Positions 9,074 through 9,658 of a DNA stretch of 51,176 bases are shown here, piece after piece. The notes beneath the pieces were generated by a model. The model worked only from the letters and a program-made list of their open reading frames with translations, searched no databases and had not been told where the DNA came from. The position numbers and the translations under genes were made by a program. This DNA comes from Candidatus Nomurabacteria bacterium RIFCSPLOWO2_12_FULL_40_42 (GTDB lineage: Bacteria; Patescibacteriota; Minisyncoccia; Phycocordibacterales; UBA9973): positions 1 through 51,176 of the forward strand of contig MFVS01000024.1 in NCBI GenBank assembly GCA_001786195.1, in the 5' to 3' direction. Within the stretch, counting starts at the first letter, position 1, and the number at the start of each line of letters is the position of its first letter.

Positions 9074-9658
9074 TTAATTTGGTTTCGGCTCTTCGGCTTT
9101 GACATCTTTGGCGTGGTCGATAAAGAGGACGCCGTTTAGGTGGTCTGTCTCATGCTGGAAAATCTGCGCGAGCAAACCCGCTGCGCCGCGAGTAAATTTC
9201 TTGCCGTTTTCATCGTAAGCGGTGACGGTGGCCTTGAGGGACCTCCAAGTCTTGCCGTATAGTGGGCGGACCGAAAGACAACCTTCAGGCATCCAAATTT
9301 TTTCCCGGGAAAGTTTAGAAATTTTTGGATTTATGAAAATTAAGTCTTTGGGAACAAAATCTTTCTGTGCGGGGTCGCTATCTGCGCCTTCTGGCGCAGC
9401 GCTGCTTCTCGGCTCGCCAACCTGCGAAACACCCCGTCCAGAAAATTTTGTTCCCAAAACTTTCCCAGACACCACAAAAATCCGCAGTGGATACCCAATT
9501 TGCGGCGCGGCGATAGCCACGCCGTCCCCCTGGCTTTTGAGCGCCTCAGACATTTCTCTTAATATTTTTTTTATTTTAGCTGTTTTTATGTCGCCGATGA
9601 CGACTTCTTTGGCGACTTTACGGAGTATTTTTTCTTCTTTTTGTAAAATTTTCTTCAT
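9074..9658 (-). CDS. def: Peptide deformylase with in-frame inserted element
   Basis: GVAIAAPQIGYPLRIFVV, EGCLSVRP, QHETDHLNGVLFIDH; insertion GVSQVGEPRSSAAPEGADSDPAQ. Confidence 0.95.
   Translation of the reverse strand: MKKILQKEEKILRKVAKEVVIGDIKTAKIKKILREMSEALKSQGDGVAIAAPQIGYPLRIFVVSGKVLGTKFSGRGVSQVGEPRSSAAPEGADSDPAQKDFVPKDLIFINPKISKLSREKIWMPEGCLSVRPLYGKTWRSLKATVTAYDENGKKFTRGAAGLLAQIFQHETDHLNGVLFIDHAKDVKAEEPKPN
9347..9458. repeat. In-frame structured element in def (core 9368-9436) with flanking inverted repeats
   Basis: Core tgcggggtcgctatctgcgccttctggcgcagcgctgcttctcggctcgccaacctgcgaaacaccccg (69 nt); arms tttgggaacaaaat (9347-9360) and attttgttcccaaa (9445-9458). Confidence 0.85.

What the first reader, a model, noticed from the sequence alone, without database searches (positions are those of the whole stretch)
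9347..9458. 69-nt structured element inserted in frame in both def and tgt, in opposite orientations, with a covarying stem
Seen directly: 9368-9436 (def, minus-strand gene) and 35520-35588 (tgt, plus-strand gene) align without gaps over 69 nt (exactly 23 codons) at about 58/69 identity on the same genomic strand, so the element is read from opposite strands in the two genes and stays open in both. The internal hairpin changes between copies in a partly compensatory way: TGCGCC-ttct-GGCGCA in def, TTCGCG-tgct-CGCGGA in tgt, where one C-G pair is replaced by G-C and one G-C pair becomes a T-G wobble. Outer GGGGT/ACCCC can also pair. Known for comparison: Rickettsia palindromic elements also insert in frame in protein genes. 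Inference: an analogous protein-tolerated selfish or structural element in this CPR lineage.
Basis: partly seen in the sequence, partly recalled or inferred. Interest (0 to 1): 0.85.

Follow-up and report, generated by a model that had tools for sequence, protein, structure and literature searches.

The report
Hairpin mobile element inside housekeeping genes
A short hairpin-forming DNA element sits in frame inside def, tgt and about 15 other housekeeping genes of a Nomurabacteria genus; its arms differ from gene to gene yet always pair, which fits a selfish element that proteins tolerate and replication keeps palindromic.

Summary
Each copy is about 118 nt: a 65-nt core that folds as a three-way junction, flanked by arms of about 26 bp that pair within a copy but differ between sites. 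I recovered 116 full copies from one Candidatus Nomurabacteria genus (70 of 80 genomes hit), with patchy spread outside it. 105 lie inside genes at 18 recurring sites (def, tgt, pcrA/uvrD, tsaD, ileS, recG, uvrB and others), in essentially one reading-frame class and either orientation. Relatives lack the insert, so it is not an ancestral loop; in Def it is modelled as a disordered loop. In another family the element exists as ~115-nt copies with identical arms and ~10-bp target duplications, so it is, or was, mobile. Arm mismatches are biased to G·T on one element strand at 14 of 14 informative gene sites, whatever the gene's direction, so mRNA structure is not what is conserved. I favour a selfish hairpin element whose arms are homogenised and core inverted by replication template switching; SbcD, a hairpin nuclease subunit, was not found in the genus. 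The transposase is unknown.

The parts
9344..9461 (-). whole element in def: canonical left arm 9436-9461, core 9371-9435, right arm with one bulged nucleotide 9344-9370 (boundaries about +-2 nt)
   Evidence: covariance model hit 9353-9451 (102 bits); arm pairing profile; folds
9371..9435 (-). 65-nt core of the def copy, canonical strand = gene sense; read as GVSQVGEPRSSAAPEGADSDP
9074..9658 (-). def, peptide deformylase (194 aa); insert at residues about 71-103
   Evidence: TIGR00079 125 bits; residues 71-101 are the only stretch with pLDDT < 50
35496..35613 (-). whole element in tgt; canonical strand is antisense to the gene: left arm 35588-35613, core 35523-35587, right arm 35496-35522
   Evidence: covariance model hit 35505-35603 (100.7 bits); folds
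35523..35587 (-). 65-nt core of the tgt copy; read by the gene on the other strand as GSLSSRARGALPLGSSACETP
34915..36162 (+). tgt, tRNA guanosine(34) transglycosylase; element in the loop between SLEEHKRL and ALFGIVQG
   Evidence: TIGR00430 478.9 bits in two stretches; orthologs with and without insert
8810..8843 (-). a different palindromic repeat (CCTCCCCCTT..AAGGGGGAGG) in frame in fmt, at the place where two related genomes carry this element
   Evidence: type A in fmt in L053 and L058

Best explanation
This is a non-autonomous mobile palindromic element (about 118 nt) with a three-way-junction tip. Copies that landed in frame in permissive loops of essential proteins cannot easily be lost and are inherited; the host translates straight through them. 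SHOWN by computation: family size, in-frame residence in one reading-frame class, fixed arm length, co-varying arms and core, both orientations at the same site, strand-specific G·T bias, transposon-like copies with target duplications in another family, and no SbcD hit in the genus. INFERRED: the element folds as single-stranded DNA of its canonical strand, most likely during replication; polymerase template switching copies one arm onto the other and sometimes inverts the core. This keeps the palindrome nearly perfect while its sequence drifts with the host gene, and gene conversion between copies keeps the cores alike. The enzyme that first moved it is not identified. Persistence may be helped by the apparent absence of the hairpin nuclease SbcCD.
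For: Copy number and spread: 70 of 80 genus genomes, and 41 of 179 sampled genera of the order at E<1e-6. Covariation score 0.506 against 0.171 shuffled, 93.4% of cells paired. Arms: 83% Watson-Crick over 24 bp against 47% when arms are swapped between copies; pairing ends at about bp 26. Coding-level covariation in 78 natural Def proteins: left-arm E or D goes with right-arm S (31 of 43), left-arm G with right-arm P (15 of 27). 105 of 116 copies are in genes, in one sense and one antisense frame; the +1 shift between them is what an in-place inversion including the bulged base gives. Both orientations occur at def, tgt, tsaD, pcrA, recG. Canonical-strand G·T over A·C 110:42, at 14 of 14 informative sites; in the mRNA sense 61:91. 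Mobility: G125 copies are 113-116 nt between conserved CTGTCCGGGG ends, arms near-identical, about 10-bp direct repeats outside at 5 of 8. Template switching is known to homogenise inverted-repeat arms and invert spacers in coding DNA (PMC8604942). SbcD: 0 of 80 genus genomes, 13 of 14 controls.
Against: No transposase could be tied to it: no autonomous copy with the G125 ends, no DDE_Tnp_1 in G125, and no core near 20 sampled Y1 transposase genes. Template switching would be expected to give variable arm lengths, but the boundary is sharp at about 26 bp. No fresh insertion with a closely related empty site was found, so how site-specific outer arms arise is not seen. The G·T count is not corrected for relatedness beyond the per-site test.
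Confidence: 0.65

Rival explanations
1. Fold-back insertion: the mobile unit is only the core plus short inner stem, and the right arm is made at insertion by copying about 15 nt of the host's left flank backwards (hairpin-primed synthesis), so the arms are host DNA from the start.
For: In def the left arm encodes the host motif KIFxxxF also seen in insert-free orthologs, and the right arm is its inverted copy. Two copies in one genome (pcrA and cca in G046, L176 and L178) have identical variable core positions but unrelated outer arms. The outer 10 nt of the arms have almost no cross-site consensus. Arm length is fixed.
Against: Recent copies in G125 share arms and have direct, not inverted, target duplications; the recent G031 burst of a related family carries its arms along. 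The inner 16 nt of the arms do share a consensus across sites. Gene conversion of cores between old copies explains L176/L178 as well.
Confidence: 0.18
2. Functional RNA structure in the host mRNA: a regulatory hairpin, a processed or spliced insert, or a translational bypass element.
For: Very stable folds and strong covariation.
Against: The element occurs on either strand relative to the gene, even at the same site. Arm wobbles show no G·U excess in the mRNA sense (61:91) but a clear one on the element strand (110:42). Length is kept in frame and stops are avoided in the two frames used, which is unneeded if the insert is removed or bypassed. No Rfam family matches it.
Confidence: 0.07
3. 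Selection for a double-stranded or cruciform DNA site (protein binding, replication or repair signal), so that arms are kept complementary by compensatory selection and copies are useful to the host.
For: Long-term retention in DNA repair and translation genes; core more alike than flanks in 285 of 335 same-orientation ortholog pairs.
Against: Patchy: 10 of 80 genus genomes lack it, and the same loops hold other palindrome families or nothing. Number per genome varies widely. A symmetric dsDNA site would not give a one-strand G·T bias.
Confidence: 0.07
4. Ancestral protein loops that happen to resemble each other.
For: None found.
Against: Orthologs in other families and several in the genus lack the residues; 18 unrelated gene sites share the sequence.
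Confidence: 0.01

Closest known systems
Rickettsia palindromic elements (RPE-1 to RPE-8)
   Same: 100-150 nt palindromic selfish elements found in frame inside many protein genes (discussed in PMC3733652, PMC6649704; details otherwise from general knowledge)
   Different: Here the arms are site-specific yet complementary, the tip is a conserved three-way junction, the core is read from both strands at the same sites, and the host is a CPR bacterium. PMC6649704 reports that RPE arms lose identity over time; here pairing is kept
Coding palindromes of Nematomorpha mitochondria (PMC6649704)
   Same: Long inverted repeats inside protein genes, read through, with arms kept identical; the authors also discuss template-switch conversion
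   Different: Those are perfect repeats with no shared conserved core reported and no sign of transposition; here a mobile family with a structured core
REP/RAYT and CGTC repeats (PMC3733652)
   Same: Short palindromes, some in frame inside genes, many of them replication and repair genes
   Different: No GTAG/CGTC end tag, about three times longer, and no core found near 20 sampled Y1 transposase genes of the genus
MITEs with terminal inverted repeats
   Same: G125 copies have shared inverted ends and ~10-bp direct target duplications
   Different: In the Nomurabacteria genus the ends are not conserved between copies, and no autonomous partner was found
Mitochondrial byp (translational bypass) elements of Magnusiomyces
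   Same: Hairpins inside coding sequences
   Different: Here the frame is kept and open on both strands, so bypass is not needed

Membership tests
Rickettsia palindromic element (RPE) | palindromic element of about 100-150 nt, in frame in protein genes | tested here: met
   about 118 nt, 105 of 116 copies in genes in one frame class
Rickettsia palindromic element (RPE) | sequence homology to an RPE family | not tested
   no RPE sequences were compared; Rfam scan of the window gave only RNase P and a tRNA
Rickettsia palindromic element (RPE) | family consensus extending through the arms | tested here: not met
   weak consensus in the inner 16 nt, almost none in the outer 10
MITE | terminal inverted repeats shared by copies | tested here: inconclusive
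   met in G125, not in genus g1
MITE | target site duplication | tested here: inconclusive
   about 10 bp at 5 of 8 G125 copies; not assessable for old gene-resident copies
MITE | parent autonomous transposon with the same ends | tested here: not met
   only short copies carry the ends in G125; no DDE_Tnp_1 there
REP element of a RAYT | 20-40 bp palindrome with GTAG or CGTC end tag | tested here: not met
   about 26-bp arms plus 65-nt core, no end tag
REP element of a RAYT | located next to a RAYT gene | tested here: not met
   0 cores within about 1 kb of 20 Y1 genes; several element-rich genomes have no Y1 hit
Known structured RNA family (Rfam) | match to an Rfam model | tested here: not met

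The most novel reading that the evidence does not exclude
A new class of hairpin element that moves as single-stranded DNA of one strand: the conserved three-way-junction tip is the mobile module, and the paired arms are copied from the target by fold-back synthesis, so each insertion builds a custom 26-bp hairpin from its host gene. Tips of different families compete for the same protein loops.
Probability: 0.18. Interest if true: 0.92.

Novelty: new variant of a known kind. Interest (0 to 1): 0.73.

Why it matters
It shows that essential proteins of a CPR lineage are repeatedly interrupted by a mobile hairpin that is translated in either orientation. More than a hundred natural copies give a rare data set for asking how palindromes persist in coding DNA. 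The co-varying, site-specific arms with a one-strand wobble bias make template-switch homogenisation directly testable in nature, and the apparent absence of SbcD gives a concrete genetic hypothesis. The inserts also matter practically, since annotation and structure work on CPR proteins will meet them as unexplained disordered loops.

Tried and rejected
A hammerhead-like core (CUGACGA) on the element strand was considered and dropped: it is not conserved in the def copy and not in Rfam. RAYT mobilisation was considered because Y1 transposases are common in the genus, and not supported. A search for an autonomous transposon with the G125 ends found none. I expected cores at one site to be closest to each other; they are only slightly so (0.69 same gene, 0.72 same genome, 0.67 neither, over variable columns), pointing to exchange between sites. 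Literature searches for such elements in CPR found nothing specific. A search for a recent insertion with a near-identical empty allele was not achieved. One family scan failed because of stops in the submitted stretch; the first ortholog extraction failed on strand orientation and was redone.

Full report
WHAT IS THERE. The window belongs to a 768-kb assembly (G000, 95% complete) whose nearest named tgt relatives are Candidatus Nomurabacteria (CPR). On the minus strand of the window both read GGGGTGTYTCGCAGG...GCGACCCC, a 65-nt core (9371-9435 in def, 35523-35587 in tgt). def is on the minus strand and tgt on the plus strand, so the core is read from opposite strands. In def the outer arms are TTTGGGAACAAAAT.../...ATTTTGTTCCCAAA; in tgt they are GCGCGGAAGAAAAAG.../...CTTTTTCTTCCGCGC. 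Each copy folds far better than shuffled sequence on either strand.

A FAMILY. A DNA search of 100 relatives found good copies almost only in the same genus. A 36-copy gapless alignment was counted against the structure: outer stem through GGGGT/ACCCC, one hairpin with GGCT/AGCC, one hairpin of seven pairs. 93.4% of cells pair, 28 of 39 pairs have changes on both sides, and the covariation score is 0.506 against 0.171 in shuffles and at most 0.141 when slid. A covariance model hit 70 of 80 genomes of the genus and, patchily, 82 of 399 genomes sampled from the order at E<1e-6, strongly in one genome of family f47 and in genus g76 of family f74. G000 itself has seven hits, the third strong one in recG.

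WHERE IT SITS. I extracted 116 full copies. 105 lie inside genes at 18 sites: tgt, def, tsaD, pcrA/uvrD (two sites), ileS, recG, uvrB (two sites), leuS, valS, fmt, mnmA, cca, ksgA, a squalene-cyclase-like gene, an RluA-family gene and polA (names checked with NCBIfam). Nearly all use one sense frame (GVSQADEPRGSAPRARGDSDP) or one antisense frame (GSLSPRARGALPLGSSACETP): 55 and 50 of 109 long-ORF copies, four others. A second antisense frame is just as free of stops but hardly used, so openness alone does not explain the choice. The two frames used differ by the one base that an in-place inversion including the bulged base would add. Indeed def, tgt, tsaD, pcrA, recG and the cyclase-like gene carry the core in both orientations in different species.

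INSERT, NOT ANCESTRAL LOOP. The tgt loop between SLEEHKRL and ALFGIVQG is 27-31 aa (anchor to anchor) in most other families and in some members of the genus, and 52-99 aa where filled. The same loop in other species holds quite different palindrome families, each again with site-specific arms. In Def, an insert-free member of the genus reads KIFLEDF...KDLVLINP and outgroups differ. AlphaFold2 on a 40-sequence alignment gives a good Def fold, in which the only stretch below pLDDT 50 is residues 71-101, the insert.

THE ARMS. Watson-Crick pairing over 24 bp is 83% within copies and 47% when arms are swapped between copies. By distance from the core it is about 63-95% up to 25 bp and then drops to about 26%, so arm length is fixed. 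The inner 16 nt share a weak consensus across sites (about GAAAAATTTCCTTTGC), the outer 10 almost none. Between orthologous copies, arm positions changed on both sides with pairing kept outnumber one-sided changes (562 against 270 in pairs with flanks above 75% identity; pairs are not independent). The same is visible in 78 Def proteins from public data: where the left arm encodes E or D before F, the right arm encodes S in 31 of 43; where it encodes G, the right arm encodes P in 15 of 27.

WHICH STRAND MATTERS. If the mRNA hairpin were selected, wobbles should be G·U in the mRNA. They are not: 61 G·U against 91 A·C. On the element's canonical strand they are 110 against 42, and G·T exceeds A·C at all 14 informative gene sites, whichever way the gene runs (pooled binomial p = 3e-8, not corrected for relatedness). 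So the folded form that matters is the element's own strand. In about half the copies that is the non-coding strand of the gene, so single-stranded DNA is the likelier form (inference).

MOBILITY. In G125 (family f47) copies with near-identical cores have matching inverted ends (CTGTCCGGGGAAAATTC...GAATTTTCCCCGGACAG, 113-116 nt in all) and 5 of 8 are flanked by direct repeats of about 10 bp, as left by a transposase that makes staggered cuts. A related palindrome family shows a burst of about 20 near-identical copies, arms included, in G031. I could not name the enzyme: no long element with the G125 ends was found, DDE_Tnp_1 is absent from G125, and RAYT-like Y1 genes are common in the genus (50 of 80) but 20 of them had no core nearby.

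MECHANISM. Shown: family, frame, inversion, arm co-variation, strand bias, past transposition in a relative. Inferred: replication exposes the canonical strand; it folds; the polymerase switches template within the hairpin, copying one arm onto the other and occasionally inverting the core. This process is documented for inverted repeats in coding DNA (PMC8604942) and was proposed for Nematomorpha coding palindromes (PMC6649704). It explains why arms track the host codons on one side and mirror them on the other. Gene conversion between copies would explain why cores at one site are hardly closer to each other than cores at different sites. SbcD, part of the nuclease that cuts long hairpins, was not detected in any of 80 genomes of the genus but was in 13 of 14 control genomes; this is absence of detection, not proof of loss.

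COMPARISON. It works like Rickettsia palindromic elements and like intragenic REPs, which also favour replication and repair genes (PMC3733652). I do not file it under either: RPE homology was not tested and an arm consensus is not met, REP end tags and RAYT neighbourhood were tested and not met. Novelty: a new variant of in-frame palindromic selfish elements, with arms that are site-specific but constantly re-matched.

LIMITS. Copies are related by descent, so pooled counts overstate significance. Genomes are draft. No pair of filled and empty alleles close enough to see an insertion event was found, so the origin of the outer arms stays open.

Noticed in passing
8810-8843 (fmt, minus strand): A GGGGGAGG palindrome (CCTCCCCCTTGATAAGGGGGAGGT) is in frame in fmt at the place where two related genomes carry the type A element, so different palindrome families occupy the same protein loop.
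   Followed up: partly
35198-35245 (tgt): tgt carries a second in-frame palindromic repeat of the same GGGGGAGG type in another loop, absent from most orthologs.
   Followed up: partly
17329-17373 (GAPDH-like ORF 16915-18018): A near-perfect 22-bp coding palindrome without core inside a glyceraldehyde-3-phosphate dehydrogenase-like gene.
   Followed up: partly
31155-31187 (dnaX): Another GC-rich palindrome in frame in the DNA polymerase III gamma/tau gene (HPTLRPPLDKGRVGE); a further SLPAGRQGD repeat lies downstream.
   Followed up: no
1-168 and 1718-1885; 1919-2071: A 168-nt inverted duplication at 98% and a 51-nt tandem repeat next to a tRNA at the contig end; possibly an assembly artefact.
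   Followed up: no
L286-L310 (genome G031): About 20 near-identical 'type 3' palindromes (GGTACGGATTTTTT...CTCGGCTCGACAGCCTCGAAACC) with shared arms, apparently a recent burst; they share the GGCTGnCGAGCCGAGA hairpin with type A.
   Followed up: partly
genus-wide (L326-L328, L349-L368): RAYT-sized Y1 transposases (about 210-260 aa) occur in 50 of 80 genomes of the genus, up to 11 per genome, with unknown targets.
   Followed up: partly
genus-wide: No SbcD (TIGR00619) hit in any of 80 genomes; may bear on why long palindromes persist here.
   Followed up: partly
40800-46944: Several tandem paralogs of a large Cys-rich (zinc-ribbon-like) protein with repeated motifs (families D1-D4).
   Followed up: no
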